DNA of 64,000 nt, taken from Akkermansia sp. Its GTDB lineage: Bacteria; Verrucomicrobiota; Verrucomicrobiia; Verrucomicrobiales; Akkermansiaceae. Shown one piece after another: positions 5,645 through 60,030 of the stretch. Every line of letters starts with the position of its first letter. The stretch's first letter is position 1. The notes under the pieces are model-generated. The model did not search any database. It was not told the DNA's origin and saw only the letters and a program-made list of their open reading frames with translations. The position numbers and the translations under genes were made by a program. The stretch covers positions 22,367-86,366 of the forward strand of contig JAFURE010000019.1 in NCBI GenBank assembly GCA_017471985.1, given 5' to 3'.

Positions 5645-6268
5645 TCAGTGCTTACCGCACTTGCACTCGTGGCCTTCACCGTGGCCACCGCAGCATTCGC
5701 CGTCACCATGACCGTGACCACCGCATTTGCACTCATGGCCTTCACCATGGCCACCGCAGCATTCACCGTCGCCGTGACCGCACTTGCACTCGTGCTCACC
5801 CTCACCGTGGTTCTTGCAGTCACTCTCGCAATCATCGCAGTTGCCGCTGCAACCGCCGCCACAGGAGCAGCTTACCTGCTGGTTCATGGAGTCGGCCACC
5901 TCCTCATCGGTGGGAGCGCAGCCCTTCTCGATGGCGATGCAGAGGTACTGGTGCACGATATTGAGCATTTCGTCGAGCTCCTGGCGAGCCTCAAGGAATC
6001 CCTTGCAGATGGGGTTGTCAATCACGTCCTGCCGCAGACCGTCGAAAGTCGAAATTTCCTCCTCAGAAGGGGGCATGCCCTCCATGTGCTTGTTGCGGAG
6101 CTTCTCGCCATACTCGTTGACCTTGCGGAAAAGATCAGTGGCTTCGGGGTTCTGGTAGAAAAGGCCGATGCGAGCGCGAGCGGAAACGACCTTCTGGCTC
6201 TGAGCAACGGCATTGGCCAGCTCGGTGGTGAGCTTCACCAGTTCGGGAGAAAGGGATGTATTTGACAT
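5645..6268 (-). CDS. YlbF/YmcA-family protein with Cys/His/Gly-rich metal-binding-like tail
   Basis: A 207-residue protein when started at the ATG at 6268, just 10 nt below a -10 box; the longer ORF start at 6307 would overlap the promoter. Residues ~1-125 are a helical YlbF/YmcA (Com_YlbF) domain (QSQKVVSARARIGLFYQNPEA, then FDGLRQDV). In Firmicutes such proteins form the Y-complex that guides RNase Y. Residues ~130-207 are a low-complexity tail built from Cys, His, Gly and acidic residues. It begins with CSCGGGC and includes two copies of a 20-residue unit of the form GHGDGECCGG plus HGEGHECKCG. Such a tail could bind zinc, copper or an Fe-S cofactor; this is inference. In some YlbF/YmcA proteins Cys residues hold Fe-S clusters. 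No membrane segment is seen. Confidence 0.8.
   Translation of the reverse strand: MSNTSLSPELVKLTTELANAVAQSQKVVSARARIGLFYQNPEATDLFRKVNEYGEKLRNKHMEGMPPSEEEISTFDGLRQDVIDNPICKGFLEARQELDEMLNIVHQYLCIAIEKGCAPTDEEVADSMNQQVSCSCGGGCSGNCDDCESDCKNHGEGEHECKCGHGDGECCGGHGEGHECKCGGHGHGDGECCGGHGEGHECKCGKH
5651..5782 (-). repeat. Tandem ~66-bp repeat encoding the Cys/His-rich tail
   Basis: Two adjacent near-identical copies of about 66 bp encode the repeated ECCGGHGEGHECKCG segment of the YlbF-family protein. Boundaries are approximate. Repeat-number variation between strains is expected. Confidence 0.65.
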
Positions 6269-6278
6269 AACGCGGCGC

Positions 6279-6307
6279 ATTTTAGCACAAATGTACCGCC
6301 TATGCAA
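6279..6307 (-). promoter_or_regulatory. Promoter of the YlbF-family gene (near-leaderless)
   Basis: Minus strand TTGCAT (6307-6302), 17-nt spacer, TAAAAT (6284-6279) with an extended TG. The start codon at 6268 is 10 nt downstream, so the leader would be only about 4 nt. Confidence 0.6.
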
Positions 6308-6382
6308 TGGCAGAGTCTGTCAAACAGCAGGCAAGAAATCCTAGTATGACACTAGGATTGTATCAGAATACACGTCACCTGC

Positions 6383-6411
6383 TTGACAAGGGGGCGATAT
6401 GGGGGTATGCT
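6383..6411 (+). promoter_or_regulatory. Near-consensus promoter inside the long ankyrin ORF
   Basis: TTGACA (6383-6388), exactly 17 nt, TATGCT (6406-6411). The next in-frame ATG (6421) is 9 nt downstream. This argues that translation starts at 6421 and not at the first ATG (6307). Confidence 0.75.
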
Positions 6412-6420
6412 GCGCTGCAG

Positions 6421-7047
6421 ATGGATAACGAAGCATATCAGACAGGAACACCGCTGTTCAGAGCGATTACGACCGGGGAAAGTGAGCAGGTACGCCTGCT
6501 GCTGGCAAAAGGCGAGGACGCGAATGAATGTTACGGTGAGGATGAGGAACCGGCTCTGCTGGTTGCGGCCATTGAAAACCGCGAACAGATATGCAAACAG
6601 CTCATTGCTGCCGGGGCCGCTGTGAATGCCTGCGACACGCGTGGCTACACGCCACTGATGGCAGCGGTATGCGCTGACAGTCTGAATATTGTAAAAATGC
6701 TACTGTCCGCCGGTGCCGATGTGAACCGCAGCTGTGCACAGAGCAATGCCACCGCCCTGCACGATGCAGCTACAGGAAACCATCTGGAAATTACCCGCGA
6801 GCTATTAGCTGCCGGCGCCGAGGTTAACGCCCCCGAGAACAATGAGGGAAACACCGTGCTGATGTGTGCCGTACAAGCACTGTCACCGGAAATCACCGAG
6901 CTACTGCTGACAGCAGGTGCCGACCGAGACACTCGCAGCAGCCGTGGCGACACAGCGCTCGAGCTCATTCGCACCGAGCTACTCTACCTCTGGGAGCCGG
7001 TGAAGTGCGCCCGTGCCCGACGCATCGAACAACTTCTGACTGTCTGA
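6421..7047 (+). CDS. Ankyrin-repeat protein
   Basis: A 208-residue protein made almost wholly of five ankyrin repeats (starting near residues 9, 43, 76, 110 and 143). The typical TPLM-AAV and LLL-AGADVN signatures are visible in each. The start at 6421 is chosen because a near-consensus promoter lies immediately before it and because the first repeat begins nine residues in; the ORF is open back to 6307. No signal peptide or membrane segment is present, so it is probably a cytoplasmic protein-protein interaction module. The partner is unknown. It is divergent from the YlbF-family gene and is followed 27 nt later by a lipoprotein gene on the same strand. Confidence 0.85.
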   Translation: MDNEAYQTGTPLFRAITTGESEQVRLLLAKGEDANECYGEDEEPALLVAAIENREQICKQLIAAGAAVNACDTRGYTPLMAAVCADSLNIVKMLLSAGADVNRSCAQSNATALHDAATGNHLEITRELLAAGAEVNAPENNEGNTVLMCAVQALSPEITELLLTAGADRDTRSSRGDTALELIRTELLYLWEPVKCARARRIEQLLTV

Positions 7048-7074
7048 AACGACTCACTCCAATATCCGAACTCT

Positions 7075-7767: not shown

Positions 7768-7777
7768 GAGAGCGGCT

Positions 7778-8527
7778 TCAGATAAAAATCTCAGGCTGTT
7801 TGGGCTCAGACGCCACCATATTCAAGCGCTGGGTCATCCCCTCGAGCATGGGCGGGGGCAGCAGTCGCGAGCGGCGGGGACAGATAGCCACACAGCGCAT
7901 ACAGAGAATGCATTTGGCGGCATCCGTCGTGTGCGGGGCATTCGCCGGAATAGCCCCGACCGGGCACAGACGTGCACATTTACCACAACCTCGGCAGCTG
8001 TCAAGAGTAAGCGGAGCCACGGGCATCTGCGGACGCTCACGATAGGGCATGTTCCCGGGTACACAGACGGTGCTCAGGTTACCCTCTGCCAATTTGGCAG
8101 CCACGGTGCGGCCGAACTCAGCGGCTTTGTCCGCATCTGCACCGTGCGGACGCCCGGCTGCAATACTGCGCACGATTGAATGCTCTGCAATGAACGCAGC
8201 AGCGGCAATCACCTTGTAACCATTGGCAGTAAGCACGGTATGCAGCTCCAGCAGAGCATCCTCATAAGCTCGGTTACCATACACCACCACAGCAATGGCC
8301 GGGCCGCCGTTTCCTTTCAGCACACGCAAACGCTCCAGCGCGACCTCGGGTACACGACCACCATACACCGGCACTACGGCCAGGAGCGGAGCGCTCACCG
8401 ACTCTGCCGCCACTGGGGCGCACAGGTCTACGCGACGTACAGCCATCCCCTGAGTGATGGCCGAAGCTACCTTCTCACAGCCTCCCGTGGGGCTGAAAAC
8501 CGCTGAAATCCATTCTGCTGAGCTCAT
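7778..8527 (-). CDS. EFR1-type flavodoxin-ferredoxin protein
   Basis: A 249-residue protein with an N-terminal flavodoxin-like domain (FSPTGGCEKVA near residue 11, AVVPVYGGRVPEVA near 50, AVVVYGNRAYEDAL near 79) and a C-terminal 2[4Fe-4S] ferredoxin. The ferredoxin has two complete CxxCxxCxxxCP motifs: Cys 178/181/184/188 and Cys 206/209/212/216. This is the EFR1 architecture, common in anaerobes, which couples FMN and Fe-S electron transfer. The physiological partner is unknown. It suggests an anaerobic or microaerophilic lifestyle. The gene stands alone on the minus strand with its own near-leaderless promoter. Confidence 0.88.
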   Translation of the reverse strand: MSSAEWISAVFSPTGGCEKVASAITQGMAVRRVDLCAPVAAESVSAPLLAVVPVYGGRVPEVALERLRVLKGNGGPAIAVVVYGNRAYEDALLELHTVLTANGYKVIAAAAFIAEHSIVRSIAAGRPHGADADKAAEFGRTVAAKLAEGNLSTVCVPGNMPYRERPQMPVAPLTLDSCRGCGKCARLCPVGAIPANAPHTTDAAKCILCMRCVAICPRRSRLLPPPMLEGMTQRLNMVASEPKQPEIFI

Positions 8528-8533
8528 GCCCCC

Positions 8534-8562
8534 AGTCTAGCCATTAGTCAGAACTAATACAA
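8534..8562 (-). promoter_or_regulatory. Leaderless-type promoter of the EFR1 gene
   Basis: Minus strand TTGTAT (8562-8557), 17-nt spacer, TAGACT (8539-8534), then only 6 nt to the ATG at 8527. The predicted transcription start coincides with the start codon. Confidence 0.65.
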
Positions 8563-8565
8563 GAG

Positions 8566-11500
8566 CTATTTTTCCAATTCAGCACGAATAAAGGGAGCTG
8601 TAATGCTCTTTTTGTGGCGCGCGACCTGTTTCACAGTTCCCTCAGCCACAATGGTGCCGCCATCAGCACCGGCACCGGGACCCACGTCAATAACGTAGTC
8701 GGCCTCGCATATCAGCTCGAGGTTATGCTCAATGACCACTACTGTGTTGCCCATATCGACCAGACGGCGCAGCACACCGACCAGCAGACGGACATCGTGC
8801 GGGTGCAGACCAATGGTGGGTTCCTCGATGAGATAGAGGTCCTGCGGCAGAGCCCGCCCGCGGCGAATGGCCGTAAGGGCAGCCCGACGCCCCTTAATGA
8901 GCTCCGCAACCAGCTTAATGCGCTGCGCCTCGCCGCCGGAGAGCGTGTTACTGGCCTGCCCCAGCGTGAGGTAGCCCAGGCCGGTTTCGCAGAGCAATCG
9001 CAGCGGGTCAGCCAATCGGGGTTGCCCGGCAAAGAACTCAGCGGCGTCCTCCATATTCATATCGAGCACCTCAGCAATGGTCTTGCCCTTGTAGCGCACC
9101 TGCAGAGTACGCGAGTTGTAGCGGGCGCCGCGGCAAGTCTCGCAGGGCACATTGCAGGGCGGCAGGAAATCCATCTCCTGTCGCTGATAGCCGGTACCCT
9201 TGCAGCTCTCGCAATGCCCGGCAGCCGTGTTGAAAGAGAATCGGCCGGCATCGAAGCCCAGTCGGCGGGCATCGGCACTCTGGGCAAAGAGCTTGCGGAT
9301 TTCATCGAAAATACCGATATAGGTTGCGGGAGTGGAGCGCGGGGTCTTGCCCAACGGCGATTGGTCCACGCGGTACAGAGCCCTGACGGAATCGAGCCCG
9401 CGGGAGTTTTTCCAGGCAGCGCGTTCCTCCTTACTGATGGAAGCGCCAAGAGCCTGCTGCACGGCGGGTGCCAGCGTACCGGTAATGAGCGAAGTCTTGC
9501 CCGCACCGGATGAACCGGTTACAACCGTGAATCGGGCGCGGGGGATACGCAGGTTCACATTCTTCAGGTTGTGCAGGCAGCACCCGGTGAGCTCCAGCCA
9601 CTCGGCATCCTTCACCGGCAACCACTTACCGCAGTAGGGGTGACGACGGGACTCCGCCAGGGCTCGCCCCGTGACCGACTGAGGATTGGCTGCCACCTCA
9701 TCGAATGTACCCTGTGCCACAATTTCGCCGCCATGCACACCGGCCCCCGGGCCAAGGTCAATGATATGGTCGGCGCAGCGCATGGTATCTTCATCATGCT
9801 CAACCACCAGCAGCGTATTGCCTCGCTGCTTGAGGTCCGCCAGAGTGGAGAGCAGGCGCTCGTTATCACGGGGGTGAAGACCGATGGTCGGCTCGTCGAG
9901 CACATAGAGCACGCCTCGCAGCTCCGAACCCAGCTGAGCGGCCAGACGTATGCGCTGTGTCTCGCCGCCGGACAGCGTGGTAGCGGCTCGGTCCATGGAC
10001 AGGTAACCCAAGCCCACACGCTGCAGGAAACGCAGTCGCGGAGCAATCTCTGCCAGCACATTGCGTGCAATGTCGGCTTCCCGCCCCTCGAAATGCCAGG
10101 TATTCACCAGCTCCAGTGCGCTGACGGCATCCAGCCTGCCCACCTCGGCGATATTCTTGCCGAAGAGCGTCACACCGAGAGCGAACTTATGCAGGCGCTG
10201 CCCGTGGCAGGCCGGACACAAGCGACCGGGGCCATCCTTGGCTGCAGCTTTCTCGACCTCGCGGTCAAAGCGCAGTTCACGCTCCAGCTCGCTCATCTTT
10301 TCGTCATCCTTCCTGCTACCGCCCACATCAGCCACACGCCCGTGACCGGCGCAGACCGGGCACCAACCGCGCGGCGAATTGAACGAGAAGGTGGAAGGCT
10401 CGGGCTCGGCATAACTCTCACCACACTGCGGGCAGGTCAGGCGCGTACCCAGCAACTGACTGTGCGCCCCCTGTACCAGACGCAGGAAGCCATCGCCCAT
10501 TTCCAGAGCACGGCCCACGCCCTCCTGAAGCGCCGCAAAATCGCAATCCCTGCCATTCATCGTGATATGGTTACCCTGCACACAGACCTCAGCCAGCACG
10601 ATATCAACATCGTGGTTGGAGTAGCGGTCGAGCGGCGTGAAATCCTCGGTACGGCAAAGAGAGCCATCGGCAATCATGTAGGGGTATTTCTTCTTGGCCG
10701 CCCAGCGGGCCAGGTCGGCGTAGTGCCCCTTGCGGTTGCGCACCACGGGAGCGGCAATCATGAGCGAGGCGGGGCGCTTATCAATTTCCGCCATCACAAG
10801 GGCCCGAATCTCATCGGGCAGTCGGCGCCCCACCGGCACCTTGCAACGGGAACAATGCGGCTGCCCCAGCTTGGAATAGAGAAGGCGCAGGAACTGCCAT
10901 ATTTCCGTTACCGTACCCACGGTTGACTTACAGCCACCGCGGGAGCGGTTCTGCTCAATGGCCACCGTGGGCGGCAGTCCGGTCAGGCGGTCGATGTCGG
11001 GAGTCTCCATCTGCTCAGTAAACTGGCGGGCATAGGGGCTCATGACATCCATGAAGCGCTTCTGCCCCTCAGCAAACACAATATCAAAGGCCAGCGTACT
11101 CTTACCACTGCCGGAAAGTCCGGTGACCACAGTCATCTCATTGCGCGGAATGTCAACATCGATATTCTTGAGCTGGTGATGGCGGGCACCTCGCAGCGCA
11201 ATGACGCCGTCCGGCACCGCCACATCGCCCTCAATGGCCGAGGGCGCGGAGAGCAGTTCTGCCTGAGTGCCGAGAGCCTGCGCCAGATAACCGCTCGTGT
11301 AGCCGAGCCCGCAGGCAGCCACTTGCTCAGGAGTGCCCTGCACCACGATATGACCGCCCCCGGTACCGCCCTCGGGGCCGAGGTCAATCACATGGTCAGC
11401 GCACTTAATGAGCTCAAGGTTATGCTCGATGACAAGCAGAGTATTCCCCTGCTCCACCAAGCGGTCAAAGACGCGCAGCAACACCTCCAAATCACTGAAA

Positions 11501-14082
11501 TGCAGGCCGGTACCGGGTTCATCAAGAATGAGCAGGCAGCCCTTCCCGGCGGCTTCCTCAGTAAGAGCCTCGACAAGAATGTGGGCCAGTTTCAAGCGCT
11601 GATTCTCACCGCCGGACAAGGTATTGAGCGGCTGCCCGAGCCCGAGATGCCCCAGACCAACATCCACCAGCACCTGCAGCCGCTCGGCAATGCGCCGGGC
11701 CCGGGCATTCTTTTCGCGGGCAAAGAGCCGCTGAGCACTGCGGATATCCAGAGCGAGCAGCTCGGCCATGTTGTAGCCCAGCAGAGTGATGGTGAGGGCC
11801 TGGTCAGTGTAGCGCGTGCCGTGACAGAGCGCACAGGGCACAAAAATATCGGAGAGGAACTGCATTTCCACCTTCTCCTGCCCGAGCCCCGAGCAGCGGG
11901 GACAACGCCCATCGCCGCTGTTGAAGGAGAAATAGCCCGGTTTGAGTCCTCGGGCCTGAGCTGCGGGTTCTGCCACAAAAAGAGCGCGGATATCCTCGAA
12001 CACACCGATATAGACAGCCGGTGTCGAACGGGGCGTGCGTACAATGGGGCTCTGGTCCACCAGCACCACGTCATGCACCTTGTCCAGCCCCTTAATGCTG
12101 CGCACCTTGATTTCATCTTCATCATCAAGGGCATCCGCATGCACGGAACCGTAGAGCACCTGACAGGCCAGCGAGCTCTTGCCGCTGCCGCTCACACCGG
12201 TCAGACAGGTATATACGCCCAGCGGAATATCCACATCGAAGTTGTGCAGGTTGTGGCATTCAGCACCGCGAATGGCGATTTTACCCTTCCCCTTGCGGCG
12301 GCGGCGCGGCACGGCAATACAGCGAGCGGCACTCAGGTACTGCCCGGTGAGCGACTGCTTGGCCTTTTCAATTCCTGCAGGCGCACCGGCATACACCAGT
12401 TCACCTCCGGCAACACCACTGGCCGGCCCCATGTCCACAAGGTAATCGGCGGCACGCATCACTGCTTCCTCATGCTCAACCACGACAAGCGTATTCCCGC
12501 GGTGCGACAGGCGACGCATGGCAGAAATCAGACGGGCGGTATCACGAGAGTGCAGCCCGACGGTGGGTTCATCGAGCACAAAAAGTGTTTCGGTAAGTGC
12601 TGCGCCCAGACAGGCGGTCAAGCTCACTCGCTCAATTTCACCGCCTGACAATGAACGCGTCAGTCGATTGGCCGCGATATAACCCAGCCCCACCTCACAC
12701 AGATATGCCACGCGGCTGCGCAGCTCACGCACCCCCTGAGCCAGAGAGCGGTCGCTTCCGGTGGCAGGCAGCACATGAGCATCCAGCCAGGGCAGGAAAT
12801 CCACCATGGGCAGTGCCATGACCTGCGGCACGGTCAGCCCGCCGATGGTGAAAGCCAGTGCCTCGGGGCGCAGACGTCCGCCGTGACAGTCGGGGCACAC
12901 GCTGTACACGCGGTAGTAGGCCAGGAACACACGCACCGTCATCTTGTGGGCATGCTTCTCCATATCATCGAAAATCCCCTTATAGCCGTACCACAGCTCA
13001 TGGTCAGAGGCCGTCCAGGGGTCGAGCTCCCCGCAATTACCGTAGAAAACCCAGTCTTTTTCCTTCTGCGTAAGTTCATTCCACGGCACATTCATGCGCA
13101 CGGCCCGGTGGCGTTTGTTGGCCCGCATGAAGTCACCGTAGCAGATGGACAGAGTTTGCGAAGACAGCATCTTGAGTGCCCCGTCGGCTATGCTGACATC
13201 GGGCACAATACCACGGTTATAATCGTAAGTTATGGCGCGACCATAGCCCTTGCAGGCCGGACAGGCTCCCAGTGGCGAATTGCCACTGAACAGACCGGGA
13301 CGCGGTTCCACCAGCGGGAACCAGTCACTGCGGAACTCGCGCAGCGCTCCCCAGCCCGAATCCGTACGCAGAGCGGTGTACACCACATCCTGCCCCAGAC
13401 GCAGGGCTGTTTCGACAGCCTCTGTCAGACGCGGGGTGGACTCTGCCCGCAGTTTCACACGGTCCTGCAACACCAGCCAGCGCTCCATACCCAGCTGAGC
13501 TTCGGTAGCGGAATCCAGCCGCAGCACCTCACCCTTACAGAACACACGCAGGTAACCCTGCCCCTGCAGAGCCTGCACCATTTCCTCAAACGTACCCACC
13601 GGGCGCACGGCAAAACACACCAGCACCTCACCGCCCTCACTCTCAGTCAATAACTGAGCCGCCACTCCCTGCGGGGTGGCCGGGCGAACCTCCCGCCCCT
13701 CGGCATCATGCCCCACAGCCAGGCGGGAAAAAATGAGTTTCAGGTATTCATTGATACCCGTCATAGTGCCCACGGTGGAGCGCGAGTTCTTCACGGAATT
13801 GCGCTGCCCCAGAGCAATGGCCGGCGGCACGTTCTCCACGGCCTCCACATTCGGACGATCCATGCGGTCCATGAACTGACGCACATAAGGCGAAAAGGTC
13901 TCCACATAGCGTCGCTGCCCCTCAGCATACAGCGTGCTCATGGCCAGGGACGTCTTACCGCTGCCGCTCGGCCCGGTAACCACCGTAATGCCCCCCAGCG
14001 GAATATCCACATTGACATTCTTGAGGTTATGTTCCTTTGCCCCGCGTATGCGGATGCTGTTCACCGCACTCTCATTCTTCAT
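8566..14082 (-). CDS. uvrA: UvrA excinuclease subunit, tandem double-length form
   Basis: At 1,838 residues this is twice the usual ~940-residue UvrA. It is two complete UvrA units fused head to tail, with four ABC nucleotide-binding halves. Four Walker A motifs ([36 protein letters not shown]), four LSGGE signatures and four Walker B/GLH regions are visible. UvrA works as a dimer that detects bulky DNA lesions and loads UvrB, so the fusion would be a covalent dimer, as known in Chlamydiae. Odd points: the first unit has lost the CxxC zinc pair after LIFSRL (it reads GHDAEGREV) while the second keeps CSRC; Walker B of the second half reads DEPGTGLH and of the fourth half IEEP. The C-terminal zinc modules (CxGxGY, then CETCRGARY type) remain in both units. 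A TAAAAT -10 box (14089-14094) lies 6 nt before the ATG. Confidence 0.95.
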
Positions 14083-14088: not shown

Positions 14089-14094
14089 ATTTTA
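14089..14094 (-). promoter_or_regulatory. -10 box of uvrA
   Basis: TAAAAT on the minus strand, 6 nt upstream of the uvrA ATG. The -35 (TTTATC at 17 nt) is poor, so only the -10 is proposed. The spacing is that of the leaderless promoters seen elsewhere in the window. Confidence 0.4.
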
Positions 14095-14195
14095 CCTACT
14101 TTTTTGGCAGAGATAAAGCCAAATGTGCGTACACGCGGCGGGCCGTAACAGATTTCCGGCGGGCACCAACGGGTGTAACCACTAGCTATATTCAC

Positions 14196-17521: not shown

Positions 17522-17550
17522 TTGAATAAGCCATGAATATCAGATAAAAT
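17522..17550 (+). promoter_or_regulatory. Promoter of the anchored hypothetical protein
   Basis: TTGAAT (17522-17527), 17-nt spacer, TAAAAT (17545-17550). The -10 overlaps the first ATG (17549), so the ATG at 17558, 7 nt downstream, is the likely start of a leaderless mRNA. Confidence 0.55.
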
Positions 17551-17557: not shown

Positions 17558-18565
17558 ATGAAAAAATGGCATAAGCGAACCCTGTTTGTTCTGGCACTGG
17601 GCTTACTCGGCACTGTGGCCGTGGCCTATCGACCGGCGCTCACTCCGGACGAGGTGCAGGAAATCAAGCACTTTGAACAGGAAGTCGCTCTGCCGGAGCA
17701 CCTCAGCGATTCCACGTTTGCCTTCACCCACACCATTCAGCTGCACAACCCGCAGAAGGGTACCTGGTACGCCGGCGGTCTGCAGGAGGTGCACAAGCAG
17801 CTCACCCCCGCCGAGTGGCCGATAGAAGTCCGCTGTGAAAACGGTAAACTGAAAGTCCTGGCACCGCCGCCCTCATTGAGCGCACCGCTCGCCCACCTGA
17901 AAGCCACCTGGGTGGTGGGAATCGGCGATGTATCCCGCGTGCGCCGTCCCAATGGGCGCCTGCATACCGAGTACCAGCTGCACATTTCCTGCAATCTGGA
18001 ACACACACCAAGTCTGTGGCGCCCGAAACAGCGGGAGATGTTCGTGCAGTTCATCACGGTTGATGTGGAAGACAAAGCTGCCGACATGGGAACCGCCCTG
18101 CTGGCAGAAACAGTCGGCCCCTTTTTCGGGCAATTCCGCATGAGCACCACCGGACCGGAACCACAGTTACCGGCCCGCTACTGCGAGTCGGCTCTTTCCA
18201 ATGCCATGTTGCGCCTGCTGCACACACTGGCAGCCTGCACCCCCGACACCCATGAGCAGCTCACCCCGCGATTGATTAACGGAGCAGCCCAACTCAGCCG
18301 ATTCGCAACCGATGCCCCCTGGCCCGAGTGCTGGGGGCACTCAGATGAAATGGCTCGCACGATTGCCTACCGCGTAGGCCCCGTGCTCGAGTACCTGGCA
18401 GAGAAAGAATGTTTCGGCAATCAGCAACTGGCAGATTTCATCAATGGCGAGCATTTTGCCCGGATTTTTGGTGAAAGTTTTGTGGACGCAAAAAGTTCCG
18501 ACATTCAAGCAGATTTAGAAGATATTGAAATTGAATACATTGAATCACCTAGCTCACAAAATTGA
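17558..18565 (+). CDS. Hypothetical exported or membrane-anchored protein
   Basis: A 335-residue protein I do not recognise. It starts with a short basic segment and one hydrophobic helix (KRTLFVLALGLLGTVAVAY, residues ~6-24) that is a signal peptide or a membrane anchor; no lipobox is present. The rest is soluble and mixed alpha/beta. A segment YPxLxxxEY-like HTEYQLHISCNLEHT lies near 140, and the C-terminal end is acidic (SSDIQADLEDIEIEYIE). The start at 17558 follows from the promoter at 17522-17550. It is divergent from hisC and is followed by a 177-nt intergenic stretch carrying a possible small RNA. Confidence 0.65.
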   Translation: MKKWHKRTLFVLALGLLGTVAVAYRPALTPDEVQEIKHFEQEVALPEHLSDSTFAFTHTIQLHNPQKGTWYAGGLQEVHKQLTPAEWPIEVRCENGKLKVLAPPPSLSAPLAHLKATWVVGIGDVSRVRRPNGRLHTEYQLHISCNLEHTPSLWRPKQREMFVQFITVDVEDKAADMGTALLAETVGPFFGQFRMSTTGPEPQLPARYCESALSNAMLRLLHTLAACTPDTHEQLTPRLINGAAQLSRFATDAPWPECWGHSDEMARTIAYRVGPVLEYLAEKECFGNQQLADFINGEHFARIFGESFVDAKSSDIQADLEDIEIEYIESPSSQN

Positions 18566-18742: not shown

Positions 18743-19546
18743 TCAGAGGATGATGCGCTCCATATCATCGGGCACATGGATGGCGCCGCGAAAATGCTCC
18801 GCAGCCTCAGCCGAGTAGGCAGAGCGACGGGTGGATAGTGTCTTGTCCTCGGTATGGTAGAGCAGCAGGTTACTCACATTGAGCCCTGCGGCCAGGCGCC
18901 CGGCATCGAGCGCGGTGCTGTGGTGTTTTTCATAAGGCTTAAAGCGCTCGCGGTCGGCGTACAGGCAGAAAGCCTCGCAGAGCAACCAATCGGCCCCGAT
19001 GGCGTATTGCCCGGCGCGCTCGTTGTATGGCTCATCGCCCAGACAGGTCAGACGGCGACCGTCGGGTAGCTGCAGGCAGAAACCGTATTGCTTTGCCTTG
19101 GTTGAACCTATATCAAAGGCCTGAGCCCGCATCCCGGCCACAGAGAACCCCTCACCGTCGGCCAGAGCATGCAGCAGAATGTCATCGTGAAGGTGCTTGC
19201 AAACCTTGCCCGGCAAAGTCAGGCGGCAGATAGACTCCAGCGCAGCCAGGCCCTCGTCGTGCCCGAAAAGGTGCAATTCACCGCTGTACTTGCCGGAGTT
19301 CATAGCCTGAGCAATCATACGAACAACCCACACGACGCCGAAAATGTGGTCGGTATGGGTGTGGGTCAGAAAAATGTCGTGAATGTCACTCAGCGACACT
19401 CCGGCCTGCTCCAGTCGGGCCAATATACCGTTGCCGCCACCGGCATCCACCAGCAGCACCTGCTGCCCGTTGCGGATGGTGAAACAAGTATTGTAGCAGC
19501 GTGTTACCGCTGCATTTCCCGTGCCCAACATGGTAAGTTCCGTCAT
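18743..19546 (-). CDS. MBL-fold metallo-hydrolase (RNase Z-like)
   Basis: A 267-residue metallo-beta-lactamase-fold protein. The metal motif THTHTDH is near residues 61-67, preceded by LLVDAGGGNG. Other ligands fit LGDEPYNERA near 170 and a later histidine (LLYHTEDK near 229). The layout is that of the RNase Z/ElaC-like and phosphodiesterase branch. True RNase Z usually has HxHxDH within a longer set of motifs, and here the exosite arm is not obvious, so the substrate is left open. The gene stands alone, divergent from pyrF; the two promoters occupy the 90 nt between them and both are leaderless-type. Confidence 0.8.
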   Translation of the reverse strand: MTELTMLGTGNAAVTRCYNTCFTIRNGQQVLLVDAGGGNGILARLEQAGVSLSDIHDIFLTHTHTDHIFGVVWVVRMIAQAMNSGKYSGELHLFGHDEGLAALESICRLTLPGKVCKHLHDDILLHALADGEGFSVAGMRAQAFDIGSTKAKQYGFCLQLPDGRRLTCLGDEPYNERAGQYAIGADWLLCEAFCLYADRERFKPYEKHHSTALDAGRLAAGLNVSNLLLYHTEDKTLSTRRSAYSAEAAEHFRGAIHVPDDMERIIL

Positions 19547-19553: not shown

Positions 19554-19582
19554 AGTATATCAGCCTGAAGGCTTCATTACAA
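19554..19582 (-). promoter_or_regulatory. Leaderless-type promoter of the MBL-fold gene
   Basis: Minus strand TTGTAA (19582-19577), 17-nt spacer, TATACT (19559-19554), then 7 nt to the ATG at 19546. Confidence 0.7.
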
Positions 19583-19598: not shown

Positions 19599-19627
19599 TT
19601 GCAATAAGGTATATTTTATGCTATTAT
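19599..19627 (+). promoter_or_regulatory. Near-leaderless promoter of the pyrF operon
   Basis: TTGCAA (19599-19604), 17-nt spacer, TATTAT (19622-19627), then 9 nt to the ATG at 19637. This places the pyrF start at 19637, although the frame is open much further upstream. Confidence 0.7.
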
Positions 19628-19636: not shown

Positions 19637-20416
19637 ATGAAATTCACCGATAAACTTCAGGCTCGTATTCAGGCCACCCGCTCTGCTCTCTGCGTGGGGC
19701 TTGACCCTCGTCCGCAGACGGAAAACATGAACGAACTGGCCGATTGGCTGCGCAAGGTAGTGGCAGAGACCGCTCCCTACACCGCGGCTTACAAGCCCAA
19801 TATCGCCTATTTCGAGGCCATGGGCCTGCCCGGTCTGAAGGTGCTCGAGGAGCTGCTGCCTGATATGCCCAAGGACATTCCGGTGATTCTCGATGCCAAG
19901 CGCGGTGACATCGGCGAAACCCAGAAATACTACGCCCAGGCCTACTTTGAGCGCATGCAGGTGGATGCCGTGACACTCAATCCCTTCATGGGCTACGATA
20001 TTCTGGAGCCCTTCCTGAACCACCCCGGCAAGGCCGTATACCTGCTGGCCGTTACCTCCAACGCCGGTTCTGCCGATATTGAGCGTCAGGTACTGGCCAA
20101 TGGCCGCAAGGTCTACCAGCTGGTAGGCGATATGGTAGAGCGCGCCCGCGCTGAGGGTGCCGCTACCGAAGTCGGCATGGTCATGGGTCTGACCAATGCC
20201 AGCAGTGAATTACTGGCAGAGCTGCCCGATGCCCCCCTGCTTATCCCCGGTCTGGGCGCTCAGGGCGGCGATTTGAGCGCGCTGACTGGCGGCACCCGTG
20301 TGGCCCCGCCCGTCATCAACGTATCCCGCGGCATCCTTTACCGTGAGCCGGAGCTGAGCTTTGCCGAAAAGGCCGAGAAGTACGCGCTGGAAATCCGCGA
20401 GGCGCTGTCCCTCTGA
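19637..20416 (+). CDS. pyrF: Orotidine-5'-phosphate decarboxylase
   Basis: A 259-residue OMP decarboxylase, the last step of UMP synthesis. The catalytic signature [10 protein letters not shown] lies near residue 90, substrate contacts include CVGLDPRPQ near 20 and [12 protein letters not shown] near 54, and the phosphate-binding end is [10 protein letters not shown] near 205. The sequence fits the type 2 (mycobacterial-like) subfamily. The start is set by the promoter and by homology of [11 protein letters not shown]. It leads a tight operon pyrF, thyA, methyltransferase, folA, with gaps of 14-17 nt, which joins pyrimidine and folate metabolism for thymidylate supply. Confidence 0.93.
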
Positions 20417-51826: not shown

Positions 51827-52759
51827 TTACTCCTGAGCAAGCAGATACCGCTCGGCCTCGATAGCTGCCCAGCAGCCCATACCTGCGGCAGAAATTGCCT
51901 GGCGATATACGGGGTCAGCCACATCGCCGGCTGCGAACAGGCCGGGAGTCTTGGTCGCGGCTCCGCCCGTGGGGCGAATGATGAAGCCGGCGGCATCCAC
52001 ATCCACCAAATCACCCAGGAACTTGCTGTTGGGAGTATGACCGATAGCCATGAACACGCACTTAACCTCAAGCGGGCGCTCCTCGCCGGTGACGGTATCT
52101 TTCAGTGTTACGCCGCAGACCTCACCGGCCTCATCGGTGTTATAAGCTGCGATGGTGCTGTTCCATACCGGCTCAATTTTGGGGTTGGAGAGCACGCGCT
52201 GCTGCATGGCCTTGCTGGCACGCAACTGGTCACGGCGGTGAATCAGGTACACCTTGGAGGCAAAGCGGGTGAGGAAGGAGGCCTCCTCACAAGCACTGTC
52301 GCCACCGCCGACCACGCAGACGGGCACATCGCGGTAGAAAGCCCCGTCGCAGGTAGCACAGGCGGTCAGGCCATGACCAATCAGGGCTTTCTCGCCCTCC
52401 ACTCCAAGATAGCGGGCAGTTGCACCCGTGGCCACGATAACAGCCTTTGCCTTGTAGGCACCGCCGGAGGTTGTCACGACAAACAGGTCGCTGCAGGCCT
52501 CCTTCGTTACCGAAATCACGTTCTCATAAGCATAGCGGGCGCCGTGCTTTTCGGCCTGCTGGCTCATGTTGAACATAAGGTCAGGCCCCATGATACCCTC
52601 CGGGAAACCGGGGAAGTTCTCGACCTCGGTTGTTGTCGTGAGCTGACCGCCGAGCTGCTCGCCGGTGAACACCAGCGGGTTCAGGTCTGCGCGGGCTGCA
52701 TAGATGGCTGCCGTGTAACCGGCAGGCCCCGTTCCGATAATAATCAATTTCTCGTCCAT
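51827..52759 (-). CDS. trxB: Thioredoxin reductase
   Basis: A 310-residue FAD/NADPH enzyme. The FAD site IIIGTGPAGYTAAIYAARA lies near 6-24, the redox centre CATCDG near 140 (Ala-Cys-Ala-Thr-Cys-Asp), the NADPH site VVGGGDSACEEASFL near 157, and the C-terminal FAD site GLFAAGDVADPVYRQAISAAGMGC near 280. The start at 52759 is chosen because a GAGG ribosome-binding element is placed correctly before it (the ORF could extend to 52795, but that would run through the promoter). It leads the trxB-Sel1-MFS-TolC-like unit. Confidence 0.96.
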   Translation of the reverse strand: MDEKLIIIGTGPAGYTAAIYAARADLNPLVFTGEQLGGQLTTTTEVENFPGFPEGIMGPDLMFNMSQQAEKHGARYAYENVISVTKEACSDLFVVTTSGGAYKAKAVIVATGATARYLGVEGEKALIGHGLTACATCDGAFYRDVPVCVVGGGDSACEEASFLTRFASKVYLIHRRDQLRASKAMQQRVLSNPKIEPVWNSTIAAYNTDEAGEVCGVTLKDTVTGEERPLEVKCVFMAIGHTPNSKFLGDLVDVDAAGFIIRPTGGAATKTPGLFAAGDVADPVYRQAISAAGMGCWAAIEAERYLLAQE

Positions 52760-52766
52760 TGACCTC

Positions 52767-52795
52767 ATCTTACACGTCCGCGCGTACCCACGCAA
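52767..52795 (-). promoter_or_regulatory. Leaderless-type promoter of trxB
   Basis: Minus strand TTGCGT (52795-52790), 17-nt spacer, TAAGAT (52772-52767), 7 nt before the ATG. It is divergent from the lolC-like promoter. Confidence 0.5.
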
Positions 52796-52837: not shown

Positions 52838-52866
52838 TTGCAAGAAAATGGAATATGAGAGATACT
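52838..52866 (+). promoter_or_regulatory. Near-leaderless promoter of the LolC-like gene
   Basis: TTGCAA (52838-52843), 17-nt spacer, GATACT (52861-52866), 10 nt before the ATG at 52877. Confidence 0.6.
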
Positions 52867-52876
52867 GTCCGCGAGC

Positions 52877-54529
52877 ATGAAAATACTGAGACGCAATCTG
52901 AGCCTGATGTTGGCTCTCCGATACCTGAACCCGCTTCGCACCCTTTTTTCTGTCATCACCCTTATCTGTCTGGTAGGTGTGGCGCTGGGTGTCATGGTAC
53001 TCATCGTGGTACTCTCAGTCATGGGCGGTTTGCAGAAAGAGATGGAGGAGCGCGTACTGGCCTTCACCCCGCACTATGTCATTGCTCAGTCCGATGGCAT
53101 GAAGCGCATTGCCCTCAGCCAGGAGCGCACTGATTGGGAACAACTTGTCGAACAGTTGCAGGCCATGCCCAATGTAGCCAGTGCATACCCCCAGCTTGAA
53201 GGGCAGGCATTTGCTCAGAGCGAAGCCGGGCGAATCATGGCTCAATTTGCTGCCCTGCAGCCGCACAACCAGGCCCAACTGGCGCCCCTGCTTCCCATGC
53301 TCAAGGAGGGTACATTTGACTTTGGCGAGGGGTTTGACACCGAGTGCGTGATTTCCCGAAAGACCGCCACCGCCCTCGGGCTGCAACTGGGCGATGAACT
53401 GCACCTGACCCCGGTAGGCAGTATCGATGAAGTTGCCGCCATTTACGCCATGATTCAGAACCCGCTCATCACCCAGAGCGATGAGCAGTTCATGCAGAAC
53501 ATTCGTGGCTTATTCGACGGAGCCACACCGGCTAACGGCGGCGAAGTCGTGGAACTTGCCAAACTCGAGAGTATCATCAACACCATTCGTGCCTACGACC
53601 CCAAGAAGATGCGCCAGAGCGAGATTGAAGCCTGCGGCACCCTCTATAAACTTGCGGTCAGTCACACCGGCGGAGTCCCCTTCACCGCAGAGGAAAAAGA
53701 GCTCTGGCAGAACACTGCAAACGGCATTGCAGAACTTGACCGCGACCGGGAAGACGGCAAAGCCGTGAAAAGCATCAACGAAATGGTCATGCCCGTTGAT
53801 TTGCGGGTAGTGGGCATTTACCAGGCACCGGAGAATATGGACGGCCCGAATGTCTACATGCCGCTGAGTATTGCACAAGAAGTGGTAGGCTACTCCAACG
53901 AAGCCGCCGGCAATGTGATGGGCCTGTGCGTGCGCTTGCAGAACGCGCACGAACCCGGGGACATTCAACAGCAGATGGAGAGCATACTGCCCGACAATAC
54001 AGCGTCGACCGAGGAGCTCCCCCTTGGCGCCCACTGGTTCATCACCCCGTGGACATCGGCATTTGAGCAATGGCACAAGCTCATTGCCAACGAGCGAATC
54101 ATGATGAACTTCGTACTCTCTGCCATCAATCTGATTGCGAGTTTCTGCATTATGGCGGTGATGTTCACCATGTCCATACAGCGTAAGCGCGAGATTGCCG
54201 TCTTGCAGGCGCTGGGGGCCACGCCCGGCAAAATTATGGGCATATTTGCCTGGCAGGGTGTTATCATCGGCTTAGCCGGTTCCATATTGGGCATTATGCT
54301 GGCGCTGCTGGTACTCTACTACCGATTTGAGATTCAGGCGGCTCTGGCCAGCATCGGCATGGACCCCTTCCCGATGGAGGCTCACGGCATCACCATTCCC
54401 GCAGAGTATGACCCCGTAACATTCGGAAAACAGGCGCTCATGGCATTTATCATGGTCGTTATTGCCTCCATCGTGCCGGCCTTCATCGTCTCCCGTCAAG
54501 ACCCGGCCAAGGCTCTGCGCTCCAACTGA
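52877..54529 (+). CDS. LolC/LolE-type ABC transporter permease
   Basis: A 550-residue FtsX/MacB-type permease. The first helix is near 20-48 (FSVITLICLVGVALGVMVLIVVLSVMGGLQ), three further helices lie in the last 150 residues (FVLSAINLIASFCIMAVMFTMS; GIFAWQGVIIGLAGSILGIMLALLVLYY; the C-terminal one before FIVSRQDPAKALRSN). The N-terminal NPLRTLFSVI and GGLQKEMEERV pattern is that of LolC/LolE, which extracts lipoproteins from the inner membrane. At 550 residues it is ~140 longer than LolC, owing to an insert in the periplasmic domain (about 190-310). No LolD ATPase gene is adjacent. The next gene starts 20 nt downstream. Confidence 0.85.
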   Translation: MKILRRNLSLMLALRYLNPLRTLFSVITLICLVGVALGVMVLIVVLSVMGGLQKEMEERVLAFTPHYVIAQSDGMKRIALSQERTDWEQLVEQLQAMPNVASAYPQLEGQAFAQSEAGRIMAQFAALQPHNQAQLAPLLPMLKEGTFDFGEGFDTECVISRKTATALGLQLGDELHLTPVGSIDEVAAIYAMIQNPLITQSDEQFMQNIRGLFDGATPANGGEVVELAKLESIINTIRAYDPKKMRQSEIEACGTLYKLAVSHTGGVPFTAEEKELWQNTANGIAELDRDREDGKAVKSINEMVMPVDLRVVGIYQAPENMDGPNVYMPLSIAQEVVGYSNEAAGNVMGLCVRLQNAHEPGDIQQQMESILPDNTASTEELPLGAHWFITPWTSAFEQWHKLIANERIMMNFVLSAINLIASFCIMAVMFTMSIQRKREIAVLQALGATPGKIMGIFAWQGVIIGLAGSILGIMLALLVLYYRFEIQAALASIGMDPFPMEAHGITIPAEYDPVTFGKQALMAFIMVVIASIVPAFIVSRQDPAKALRSN

Positions 54530-54549
54530 TTTTCCCTACCACCCGACGT

Positions 54550-55497: not shown

Positions 55498-55533
55498 AAT
55501 CGCGAGAAAAGCACATACTGCAACACATTTTGC

Positions 55534-55562
55534 TTTTCTAACGGGTACAAATGGCGTATAAT
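55534..55562 (+). promoter_or_regulatory. argG promoter
   Basis: Perfect TATAAT at 55557-55562 with a weak TTTTCT (55534-55539) 17 nt upstream. The leader of ~32 nt contains GCACGCGTGC and GCGGTAAACCGC hairpins. argG is the rare gene here with a clear 5' leader. Confidence 0.5.
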
Positions 55563-55600
55563 GCACGCGTGCGCGGTAAACCGCCGTGTACCCTGTTAAC

Positions 55601-56887
<1,287 letters not shown>

Positions 56888-56898
56888 GACTTCAACAA

Positions 56899-56935
56899 AA
56901 GCCCTCGCTGTGTTCTGCATAAGCGAGGGCTTATT
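56899..56935 (+). terminator. argG terminator
   Basis: Perfect 11-bp stem AAGCCCTCGCT (56899-56909) with AGCGAGGGCTT (56922-56932). The U tract is short (TTATT), so efficiency is uncertain. It ends 6 nt before the glycosyltransferase start. Confidence 0.7.
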
Positions 56936-56941
56936 CATACT

Positions 56942-58069: not shown

Positions 58070-59023
58070 TTATTTATTTTTGATCCTATCCGCAACAGAG
58101 AAAATTGCCGCTATCAGAGTACCCGATATCGAGTGCCATACGCATGAAATTGCCGCAGCAATGGCAGCCTCGGGCAGCAGCGGGAAGTGACGCCCCGCCA
58201 GTACTGTGGCCAAACCGGCATTCTGCATGCCTACCTCAATGGACAATGTGCGCCGCTTGGCCTTGTTCATGCGCGTCAGCACACCCGTGAAATAGCCCAG
58301 CAGATACCCCAGGCCATTGTGCAGGAAAATACACAGGAAAATCAGCGCCCCGCTTTCAAAGAACTTGCTGCCGTGAGCCGATGTCACACCGCCCACAATA
58401 CAGGCCAGTCCCAGTACGGCCAACCCGGGCATGAGCGCACAAGCAGTGCTGAACCCTCTGCATTTACCGAAAAGACGGTTACATAAAGTACCCACACCTA
58501 CCGGCAGTAGAGTAACAAGCAAAATACTGCGGAACAACCCCACGGCATCCACCTCAATACTCTCACCAACCAGCCAGAGCACAAGCAGCGGGGTCATCAA
58601 CGGGGCCAGCAGAGTGGACGCCGTGGTCATTCCCACAGAGTAGGCCACATCCCCCTTACAGAGCAGGCTCATGATATTACTCGACACCCCGCCGGGGCTG
58701 CACCCCACCAATATAAGCCCGGCTGCAATCCCCTTCGGCAAATGGAAGAAATACACAAGAGCAAAGGCAAGCAGCGGCATGATGGTGTACTGAGCAACCG
58801 ACCCGATAAAAATATCGAGCGGGCGCTGTGCCAGAACCCGGAAATCAGCCGTTGTAAGGGTCATACCCATGGTGAGCATGATAAATCCCAATATGCAGGT
58901 CTGCACATCTCCCCGCACCCAATCAAACAAGCCGGGGAAAACAAAGGTAAGCGCCGCCACCGCTATGATAAACGGTGCCGTACGTGAAGAAAGCCAGGCC
59001 GAGGCTGCCAACAAAACCTGCAT
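58070..59023 (-). CDS. Bile acid:sodium symporter (BASS) family transporter
   Basis: A 317-residue membrane protein with about 9-10 helices. The family signature is TTADFRVLAQRPLDIFIGSVAQYTIMPL near 57-84, followed by GLILVGCSPGGVSSNIMSLLCKGDVAYSV near 102-130 and EVGMQNAGLATVLAGRHFP near 260. The GCSPGG and MQNAGLA sites are the Na+ and substrate regions of BASS proteins, which also carry pantoate, pyruvate and other organic anions. The substrate is open; bile acid is only one possibility, attractive for a gut bacterium. It abuts the glycosyltransferase stop (58069/58070) in a convergent layout. Confidence 0.9.
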   Translation of the reverse strand: MQVLLAASAWLSSRTAPFIIAVAALTFVFPGLFDWVRGDVQTCILGFIMLTMGMTLTTADFRVLAQRPLDIFIGSVAQYTIMPLLAFALVYFFHLPKGIAAGLILVGCSPGGVSSNIMSLLCKGDVAYSVGMTTASTLLAPLMTPLLVLWLVGESIEVDAVGLFRSILLVTLLPVGVGTLCNRLFGKCRGFSTACALMPGLAVLGLACIVGGVTSAHGSKFFESGALIFLCIFLHNGLGYLLGYFTGVLTRMNKAKRRTLSIEVGMQNAGLATVLAGRHFPLLPEAAIAAAISCVWHSISGTLIAAIFSVADRIKNK

Positions 59024-59032
59024 ATTCGTGAG

Positions 59033-59065
59033 AGCAAAAGGCCCGACCGCACATGTGGTCGGGCC
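59033..59065 (-). terminator. Terminator after the MenC-like gene
   Basis: Stem GGCCCGACC (59040-59048) with GGTCGGGCC (59057-59065), followed on the minus strand by CTTTTGC. It lies between the MenC-like stop and the BASS start, so the BASS gene may rely on read-through or an unseen promoter. Confidence 0.65.
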
Positions 59066-59088
59066 CGGTGATAAAAATCAGCGCAGCA

Positions 59089-60030
59089 TCACAGCTTCTT
59101 CCACGGCAGCGACTTCAGCAGGGAGTCGAAGCCCAGACCGGTTCCCTTGGGAGCATGGAACTCAGGTGTCACATCCATACCCAGCTCTTCCGAGAAGGGA
59201 TTGGGACGGAACACATGCTGCGTAACAAGCCCGCACAGGGGCACCTCCTCTGCCGGCTTGCCGGTGTAGAACTTGGCAGCATTGTATGCAGCCCAGCACT
59301 GACCGAGCGGGTGGTCGAGGTAGGTTGTGAACACGGGCAGACCACTGTTGCTGTGGTGGCGGGCCGGCTTCACAAGGCGCATCATCGGCTTGCTGGTACG
59401 GGCGGGAATGGCACTCTCCTGCAGCGGGGTATCGTAGCCCAGCGGCATACCGACATCCTGCAGAGCCTGCCAGGTCTCCACATCATAGTAGCAGGGGTCC
59501 TCCACAAAGTCTATGCGCTCCTTCATGGCATCGGAAAGCATGTCCCAGAACTTCAGGGCGGCATCCAGTGACAGAGTGCAGTTGAAGTCCACACGCCACT
59601 TCCAATCGGGCACCATCGAGGCCAGGTTGGTCAGGCGCTCCACCGTTGCGGCCAGCTTGGGAACAACCTTAATCTTACCCACACGAAAACCACGCTGGTG
59701 CAGATTGTACACCTGAGCGGGAGTGGCACTCACGGTGAGAGTGGCATGGCTGCGGGGAATAGTCAGACCTTCAAACAGACTCACGCCATTGGCACGGGCC
59801 TCGCCATCGAGCTCAATGCACTTCAGCGCACGCTCGCCAAGGCGCAGCGGGGTACCGTCACGCAGGGCGTCCAGCTCATACTCAAGCGGGGAATCCCCCA
59901 ACTCGGGCCAGGACTGCAGGCAGGCATAACCGCCGTTATCACCGCGCAGAAGCACGCCCTCACGCGGCTGGGCGGCAGCACGAGCGCTCAGAGCGCCCAC
60001 GGGATAAAGTGTGTAAGGAGTATAGTGCAT
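59089..60030 (-). CDS. Enolase-superfamily enzyme, o-succinylbenzoate synthase (MenC)-like
   Basis: A 313-residue protein of the muconate-lactonizing/enolase superfamily. The MenC-type catalytic set can be traced: KxK in FRVGKIKVVPK near 120-126, the metal ligands Asp in WRVDFNCTLSLDAAL near 152, Glu in IDFVEDPCYYD near 178, Asp in LGYDTPLQE near 200, and a late lysine in MMRLVKPAR near 218. This points to o-succinylbenzoate synthase (menaquinone synthesis), but the N-terminal lid is unusual and dipeptide epimerases or other MLE enzymes cannot be excluded. No other men genes are in the window. The gene is alone on the minus strand with a strong near-leaderless promoter. Confidence 0.65.
   Translation of the reverse strand: MHYTPYTLYPVGALSARAAAQPREGVLLRGDNGGYACLQSWPELGDSPLEYELDALRDGTPLRLGERALKCIELDGEARANGVSLFEGLTIPRSHATLTVSATPAQVYNLHQRGFRVGKIKVVPKLAATVERLTNLASMVPDWKWRVDFNCTLSLDAALKFWDMLSDAMKERIDFVEDPCYYDVETWQALQDVGMPLGYDTPLQESAIPARTSKPMMRLVKPARHHSNSGLPVFTTYLDHPLGQCWAAYNAAKFYTGKPAEEVPLCGLVTQHVFRPNPFSEELGMDVTPEFHAPKGTGLGFDSLLKSLPWKKL

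What the first reader, a model, noticed from the sequence alone, without database searches (positions are those of the whole stretch)
6268..60030. Recurrent leaderless sigma-70 promoters: -35, 17-nt spacer, -10 directly before the start codon
At ten genes the -10 box sits 5-10 nt before the ATG, so transcription would start on or next to the start codon. Cases: 6268 (gap 10), 6421 (9), 8527 (6), 14082 (6, -35 poor), 17558 (7), 19546 (7), 19637 (9), 52759 (7), 52877 (10), 60030 (5). In nine the -35 hexamer (TTG-type or GTGACA) is exactly 17 nt away. Sites such as TTGACA-N17-TATGCT (6383-6411) are too close to consensus to be chance. Several lie inside the longest ORF and would move start codons. 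This implies widespread leaderless translation, paired with IF-2 (infB) and weak Shine-Dalgarno use. I know of no description of it for this group.
Basis: partly seen in the sequence, partly recalled or inferred. Interest (0 to 1): 0.75.

Follow-up and report, generated by a model that had tools for sequence, protein, structure and literature searches.

The report
Leaderless gene starts in Akkermansia
In this Akkermansia-type gut bacterium many genes have a promoter sequence directly in front of their start codon, so their messages would likely begin at or next to the start codon with no leader; the same habit has already been mapped in Akkermansia muciniphila, so this is a well-supported new case of a known thing.

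Summary
All ten sites have the stated gaps and 17-nt spacers; a mechanical scan of the window returns those ten plus one weak extra hit. In a 331-kb sample of the genome, ATG is the strongest outlier among triplets 6-10 nt after promoter-like sites (76 seen, 29.0 expected). At score 9 or more, 28 of 130 candidate first genes have a promoter 5-11 nt before the ATG, against 1 of 69 operon-internal genes and 0 of 142 E. coli first genes. The placement is kept across the genus: 87 of 106 copies of five genes, 18 of 20 for uvrA, and at one gene although five of the proteins are only 28-32% identical. Shine-Dalgarno motifs are at background. Best reading: leaderless mRNAs from ordinary sigma-70-type promoters; no transcript was mapped here. 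The claim that this is undescribed for the group fails: Cappable-seq put 10% of A. muciniphila start sites at annotated gene starts (PMC4782308), and Akkermansia is classed as Shine-Dalgarno-scarce (PMC10783764). IF-2 carries no weight. One congener, G015, shows almost no peak.

The parts
6279..6307 (-). Promoter TTGCAT-N17-TAAAAT, gap 10 to the ATG at 6268 (gene 5645-6268, no NCBIfam hit)
   Evidence: score 12.7; 0 of 1000 shuffles; relatives not examined
6383..6411 (+). Promoter TTGACA-N17-TATGCT, gap 9 to the ATG at 6421 (ankyrin-repeat-like gene ending 7047)
   Evidence: score 14.0; 0 of 1000 shuffles; lies inside the longer frame 6307-7047; relatives not examined
8534..8562 (-). Promoter TTGTAT-N17-TAGACT, gap 6 to the ATG at 8527 (ferredoxin-like gene 7778-8527)
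   Evidence: score 10.5; 6 of 1000 shuffles; 8 of 13 relatives fetched have it at gap 5-12 (13 of 16 found were fetched)
14089..14117 (-). Promoter TTTATC-N17-TAAAAT, gap 6 to the ATG at 14082 (UvrA, 1838 aa)
   Evidence: score 12.1; 2 of 1000 shuffles; 18 of 20 genus relatives fetched at gap 5-12, 15 of them at gap 6 (20 of 23 found were fetched)
17522..17550 (+). Promoter TTGAAT-N17-TAAAAT, gap 7 to the ATG at 17558 (gene 17558-18565, no NCBIfam hit)
   Evidence: score 15.1; 0 of 1000 shuffles; 8 of 8 copies with an N-terminal match (this genome included; 3 of 11 loci had none) at gap 6-8
19554..19582 (-). Promoter TTGTAA-N17-TATACT, gap 7 to the ATG at 19546 (RNase Z-like metallo-hydrolase 18743-19546)
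   Evidence: score 13.8; 0 of 1000 shuffles; 11 of 14 copies at gap 6-7 although the N-terminus length varies
19599..19627 (+). Promoter TTGCAA-N17-TATTAT, gap 9 to the ATG at 19637 (pyrF 19637-20416)
   Evidence: score 12.9; 8 of 1000 shuffles; 27 of 30 copies at gap 5-12; the other three sit 23-29 nt behind a 318-codon frame
52767..52795 (-). Promoter TTGCGT-N17-TAAGAT, gap 7 to the ATG at 52759 (thioredoxin reductase 51827-52759)
   Evidence: score 8.8; 2 of 1000 shuffles; 20 of 30 copies at gap 5-12, four of them before GTG
52838..52866 (+). Promoter TTGCAA-N17-GATACT, gap 10 to the ATG at 52877 (LolC/E-like permease 52877-54529)
   Evidence: score 9.0; 16 of 1000 shuffles; 10 of 10 copies with an N-terminal match, gaps 9-12 (20 of 30 loci had none)
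60036..60064 (-). Promoter GTGACA-N17-TAGAAT, gap 5 to the ATG at 60030 (MenC-like 59089-60030)
   Evidence: score 12.2; 1 of 1000 shuffles; 19 of 22 genus copies at gap 5-12; five order-level copies seen have none

Best explanation
These are conserved sigma-70-type promoter sequences whose -10 box sits 5-12 nt before the start codon, so RNA polymerase would likely begin the transcript on the start codon or a few bases before it, and the ribosome would then likely start on the 5'-terminal AUG without a leader or a Shine-Dalgarno site.

Shown here: the placement of the promoter sequences, its excess over chance, its near-restriction to genes that can head a transcript, its conservation across most of the genus, and the absence of Shine-Dalgarno enrichment. 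Inferred: the exact transcription start (from the usual 6-8 nt between -10 box and start, recalled) and initiation on the 5'-terminal AUG (recalled from work on other bacteria). In the published A. muciniphila data the first inferred step was measured for the species as a whole, not for these genes.
For: 1. Gene-calling-free scan of 331 kb of this genome: among the 331 best promoter-like hits, an ATG opening 80 or more codons lies 6, 7, 8, 9 and 10 nt downstream 15, 14, 7, 9 and 7 times, against 2.18 per position at gaps 20-79. Gaps 5-11: 54 seen, 15.0 expected; E. coli 6 seen, 12.8 expected.
2. Among all triplets 6-10 nt after such hits, ATG leads (76 vs 29.0, z 8.7); next are TGA (50 vs 28.2, z 4.1) and CAT (44 vs 28.2, z 3.0). 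GTG (25 vs 24.1) and TTG (26 vs 29.1) do not stand out.
3. At score 9 or more, 28 of 130 candidate first genes have a promoter at gap 5-11; six other gap windows give 7, 11, 10, 2, 1, 2; operon-internal genes 1 of 69; E. coli 0 of 142 (1 of 142 at score 8). Same genus: 17 of 91 in G001, G021 and G014 together, 28 of 164 in G004.
4. Of 41 first genes with TANNNT 5-10 nt before the ATG, 12 have TTG at spacer 17 and 6 at spacer 16, against 0-2 at the 18 other offsets tested.
5. Relatives: the best promoter in the 80 gaps scanned falls at gap 5-12 in 27/30 pyrF, 20/30 trxB, 10/10 lolC, 19/22 menC, 11/14 RNase Z-like copies, this genome included (87 of 106, about 10.6 expected); uvrA 18/20, ferredoxin 8/13; ORF 17558 8/8 with an N-terminal match.
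6. The three pyrF exceptions lie 23-29 nt behind a 318-codon frame on the same strand, as operon-internal genes would.
7. RNase Z-like relatives differ in N-terminal length, yet the ATG stays 6-7 nt after the -10 in 11 of 14.
8. SD core 4-mers at -17..-8: first genes 8% (controls 9 and 9%), internal genes 4% (controls 9 and 19%); E. coli 50 and 68% (controls 2-6%).
9. Published: 10% of A. muciniphila start sites (886 positions) are leaderless, E. coli 0.4% (PMC4782308, passages).
Against: No transcript end was measured here, for this genome or these genes. By the test used the rule does not hold in ten of 30 trxB, three of 30 pyrF, three of 22 menC and three of 14 RNase Z-like copies, and in two of 20 uvrA and five of 13 ferredoxin copies. 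Five order-level menC copies shown have no promoter-like site near the start; they were left out of the 22. G015, a large complete genome of the same genus, shows hardly any peak (5 seen, 4.2 expected; 1 of 31 first genes). In G004 SD cores are 11% (first) and 17% (internal) against controls of 7-12%, so a small residue of SD use there is not excluded. The pyrimidine before the start codon, which would fit a YR start on the AUG, is no evidence: internal genes have it too (58 of 69). At a lax threshold the window by itself is not above its own controls.
Confidence: 0.92

Rival explanations
1. The promoters are real but transcription starts a few bases up or down, giving leaders of about 3-6 nt or, for gap 5, a start inside the AUG; the genes would be short-leadered rather than strictly leaderless.
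For: Gaps of 9-12 nt occur in part of the set: lolC copies at gaps 9-12, pyrF copies up to 12.
Against: Gaps 6 and 7 are the commonest in the gene-calling-free scan (15 and 14 of the 54 at gaps 5-11) and among aligned relatives (6 and 7: 53 of 91), which places the usual start on the A.
Confidence: 0.25
2. The AT-rich box before the AUG is a translation-initiation element (unstructured or S1-binding), not a -10 box.
For: Shine-Dalgarno sites are at background, so some other initiation signal is needed for leadered genes.
Against: The box comes with TTG at spacer 16-17 (18 of 41, 0-2 at each other offset), with TG one base before the -10 in aligned copies (chosen by the matrix), and it is nearly missing at operon-internal genes (1 of 69), which also have to be translated.
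Confidence: 0.03
3. Chance matches and wrong start codons: the reader picked AT-rich hexamers next to convenient ATGs.
For: At score 8 the window has 11 hits at gap 5-11 and 5 to 11 in other gap windows.
Against: Excess in a sample five times as large without any gene calling, 87 of 106 conserved placements, 0 of 142 in E. coli by the same method at score 9.
Confidence: 0.01

Closest known systems
Leaderless transcripts of Akkermansia muciniphila, Cappable-seq (Ettwiller et al. 2016, PMC4782308; passages seen)
   Same: Same group (nearest named relatives of the window are Akkermansia and Akkermansiaceae MAGs), same feature: transcription start at the annotated start codon, with -10 and -35 signals upstream.
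   Different: There it is measured (10% of start sites, 886 positions of all kinds). Here it is predicted from sequence in another genome, per gene, and shown to be conserved in the genus; the share is of candidate first genes (28 of 130), so the two figures are not the same measure.
TA-led (leaderless) genes of bacteria (Zheng et al. 2011, PMC3160421; abstract and outline seen)
   Same: TA-like signal about 10 bp before the start codon read as a leaderless gene.
   Different: The abstract names Actinobacteria and Deinococcus-Thermus as the rich groups (over 20% of genes); Akkermansia and Verrucomicrobia do not occur in the main text held. My Meiothermus control has TANNNT at gaps 6-8 together with strong Shine-Dalgarno use, whereas this genome has none above background.
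[quoted passage not shown] passages and section 19 seen)
   Same: Akkermansia is listed; anti-SD kept (read here in G015 of the same genus), SD sites at background.
   Different: In the passages I saw that paper does not tie Akkermansia to leaderless promoters; here both features are seen in the same genome.

Membership tests
Leaderless genes of bacteria | Promoter -10 box placed so that the start site falls on or within a few nt of the start codon | tested here: met
Leaderless genes of bacteria | Mapped 5' end of the primary transcript at the start codon | not testable with these tools
   no transcript data for this genome; published for A. muciniphila as a class
Leaderless genes of bacteria | AUG (sometimes GUG) as first codon | tested here: met
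   ATG is the top outlier triplet after promoters, GTG and TTG are not; four trxB and two menC relatives have GTG
Sigma-70-type promoter | -35 TTG-type hexamer and -10 TAnnnT at 16-18 nt spacing | tested here: met
   99 aligned promoters (picked with the matrix) give cTTG at the -35 and TAnAAT at the -10
Sigma-70-type promoter | Recognition by the housekeeping sigma factor | not testable with these tools
   sequence only
SD-scarce organism with intact anti-SD | SD motifs upstream of starts at background level | tested here: met
SD-scarce organism with intact anti-SD | CCTCC at the 16S 3' end | tested here: inconclusive
   no 16S found in this MAG; present in G015 of the same genus and G041 of the same order; the tails of G004 and G017 were not read because their loci were in the other orientation

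The most novel reading that the evidence does not exclude
In this Akkermansia clade the start codon is set by transcription and not by Shine-Dalgarno pairing: leaderless is the commonest promoter position at gene starts, leadered and operon-internal genes also lack Shine-Dalgarno sites and carry a G-poor, C/A-rich stretch instead, and the anti-Shine-Dalgarno sequence is kept for some other use. It would be a natural bacterium that runs on leaderless and SD-free initiation only.
Probability: 0.5. Interest if true: 0.55.

Novelty: new member of a known kind. Interest (0 to 1): 0.35.

Why it matters
It makes the leaderless habit of Akkermansia predictable gene by gene from sequence, and shows that for several genes it is conserved across the genus, not an accident of one strain. 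It matters in practice: gene finders that pick the longest frame would place several starts wrongly (pyrF by 156 codons here), and expression constructs for Akkermansia that rely on an added Shine-Dalgarno site may be badly designed. It also gives a clean system in which to ask how ribosomes choose starts when neither a leader nor SD pairing helps.

Tried and rejected
Fixed IUPAC patterns (CTTG-N19-21-TANNNT and five others) were tried as a cheap way to compare many genomes; the peak shows in this genome but the background is high, so I did not scan collections with them.

Pyrimidine at -1 as evidence for a YR start on the AUG: rejected, internal genes have it nearly as often (58 of 69 against 28 of 28).

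bS21 (rpsU) with a strong SD, as recalled for Flavobacteriia: looked for in 30 genus loci; 2 of 30 have an SD core 4-mer at -17..-8 and 0 of 30 a promoter of score 7 or more at gap 5-12.

IF-2 as support: infB is next to nusA and ordinary.

Phylum-level comparison of loci (gaps 5-11, stricter cut): Fibrobacter 5 seen / 5.0 expected, Lentisphaerota and Kiritimatiellota 14 / 7.8 (16 / 19.0 at the laxer cut), Opitutales 3 / 1.8, Planctomycetota 7 / 6.2, Actinobacteria 2 / 4.2. The E. coli matrix may be unfit for some (Actinobacteria are leaderless-rich, PMC3160421 abstract), so I draw no conclusion. Elsewhere in the order, G057 with G042 comes near this genome (12 / 3.1 in 100 kb); G041, G050, G051 and G052 with G038 are weaker.

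PMC11968815 (passages) held the words only in its reference list. One search (promoter and ribosome-binding-site terms) listed two papers, not opened.

In one search my printed table headed '-10' showed spacer bases by mistake; one search gives the right columns. In one search minus-strand loci were skipped and one search failed to find rpsU; both were redone, but for menC with the 22 genus loci only, leaving out 8 order-level loci (five of them readable, none with a promoter-like site near the start). The locus tables were capped: 30 of 54 pyrF places and 30 of 46 trxB places were cut out, all from the genus.
Full report
What the window is. It lies in a 2.54-Mb draft genome in 123 contigs. 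The nearest named relatives, by a 701-residue glutamine-synthetase-like protein, are an Akkermansia sp. MAG from sheep cecum (96% identity) and an Akkermansiaceae MAG (84%), so the organism is an Akkermansia-type member of the Verrucomicrobiota. Of the genes behind the ten sites, UvrA, PyrF and thioredoxin reductase pass NCBIfam's curated cut-offs; the LolC/E-like permease, RNase Z-like hydrolase, MenC-like, ferredoxin-like and ankyrin-repeat-like proteins match below them, and two have no hit.

The observation. A mechanical scan of the window (ATG, at least 80 open codons, score 8 or more, gap 5-11) returns those ten and one further weak site at 25067. Shuffles of each upstream region reach the observed score 0 to 16 times in 1000. 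The window alone is a small sample: at score 8 other gap windows give 5 to 11 hits against 11, at score 12 they give 0 to 3 against 7.

Beyond the window. I took 267 kb more of the same genome (20 contig stretches). Without any gene calling, an ATG that opens a long frame stands 6-10 nt after promoter-like sites far more often than elsewhere (15, 14, 7, 9, 7 against 2.18 per position). ATG is the strongest outlier of all triplets there, while GTG and TTG are at expectation. E. coli K-12 by the same method shows no peak (6 seen, 12.8 expected). Meiothermus, from a group known for leaderless genes, shows a small one with this matrix (13 seen, 9.8 expected) and a clear TANNNT peak at gaps 6-8 before called starts. 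With called genes, 28 of 130 candidate first genes but only 1 of 69 internal genes have such a promoter at score 9. Six control gap windows of equal width give 7, 11, 10, 2, 1 and 2, so gap 5-11 is the commonest of the seven promoter positions tested in this genome, and about a fifth of candidate first genes are predicted leaderless before background is taken off. The gene caller is my own and simple, and its starts are approximate.

These boxes look like promoters. In the 41 first genes with TANNNT 5-10 nt before the ATG, TTG stands at spacer 17 in 12 and spacer 16 in 6, and 0-2 times at each of the 18 other offsets tested. Aligned copies from the genus, picked with the matrix, give cTTG at the -35, TG one base before the -10, and TAnAAT (99 promoters); spacers are 16 or 17 in 89 of 91.

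Conservation. For five genes, 87 of 106 copies from the genus (this genome included) have their best promoter at gap 5-12 of the 80 gaps scanned; about 10.6 are expected. The three pyrF exceptions lie 23-29 nt behind a 318-codon frame on the same strand. uvrA: 18 of 20; ferredoxin: 8 of 13. ORF 17558: 8 of 8 copies with an N-terminal match, five of them only 28-32% identical (3 of 11 loci had no N-terminal match). Flanking sequence differs between species, and the RNase Z-like gene was found beside pyrF in only 1 of 30 loci, this genome's own. In the RNase Z-like gene the N-terminus differs in length between species, yet the ATG stays 6-7 nt after the -10 in 11 of 14: the start codon follows the promoter. 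Five order-level menC copies have no promoter-like site near the start. The sites at 6268 and 6421 were not compared with relatives.

Shine-Dalgarno. SD cores at -17..-8 occur in 8% of first genes and 4% of internal genes, no more than at control positions; E. coli gives 50 and 68%, Meiothermus 45 and 56%; G004 of the genus gives 11 and 17% against controls of 7-12%. The 16S tail of G015, same genus, keeps CCTCC; no 16S was found in the MAG itself. Internal genes have a G-poor, C/A-rich stretch before the start.

Mechanism. The likely course: the sigma-70 holoenzyme binds, starts 6-8 nt after the -10 box, which is the AUG or a few bases before it, and ribosomes enter on the 5'-terminal AUG. 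The first part is supported by sequence and by published mapping in A. muciniphila; the second is inferred from work on other bacteria (recalled).

What is known. Ettwiller et al. 2016 (PMC4782308, passages) found 10% of A. muciniphila start sites at gene starts, 15% in Bifidobacterium pseudolongum and 0.4% in E. coli. PMC10783764 (passages and section 19) lists Akkermansia as SD-scarce with CCUCC kept. Zheng et al. 2011 (abstract) describe leaderless genes across bacteria; the group is not named in its main text. Searches for Akkermansia or Verrucomicrobia/Verrucomicrobiota with leaderless, Shine-Dalgarno, Cappable-seq or transcription start sites listed no other title that looks like a report on this; only four papers were opened. 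So the kind is known, in this very group; new are the genome, the gene-level prediction, the conservation, and the joint view of leaderless promoters and absent SD.

Limits. G015 of the same genus shows almost no peak in 100 kb, so the habit is not uniform. In the order, G057 with G042 comes near this genome, the others sampled are weaker. The matrix is recalled from E. coli and may be unfit for some phyla.

One search was run for this: it corrected the rpsU statement (2 of 30 do have an SD core) and explained the pyrF exceptions.

Noticed in passing
own sample and L207-L220, operon-internal genes: The stretch before operon-internal start codons is G-poor and C/A-rich (L207-L220: G 12-14%, C 30-34% at -20..-6), the opposite of a Shine-Dalgarno site; -1 is a pyrimidine in 58 of 69 internal genes of this genome.
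   Followed up: partly
L246-L275, upstream of rpsU: 21 of 30 genus loci keep a GTTCC(C/T)G(A/G)AC block 33-37 nt before the bS21 start codon; 2 of 30 have an SD core and none a promoter at the start; perhaps a leader element.
   Followed up: partly
window 60059-60064 and L306-L327: MenC promoters mostly keep GTGACA(AA) rather than TTGACA at the -35, which might mark a regulator or another sigma factor.
   Followed up: no
L296, L297, L299, L300: Four trxB relatives have GTG instead of ATG at the same gap of 7, which suggests leaderless GTG starts.
   Followed up: partly
window 8566-14082: UvrA is 1838 aa, about twice the length of the UvrA models it matches; its first 200 residues match again further down the same frame, and frames of 1800 codons or more occur in most genomes searched.
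   Followed up: no
G015 (L202-L206): A complete 3.5-Mb genome of the same genus shows almost no leaderless peak in 100 kb.
   Followed up: no
window 6268/6421, 19546/19637, 52759/52877: Three divergent gene pairs each fit two complete leaderless-type promoters into 90-152 nt between the start codons.
   Followed up: no
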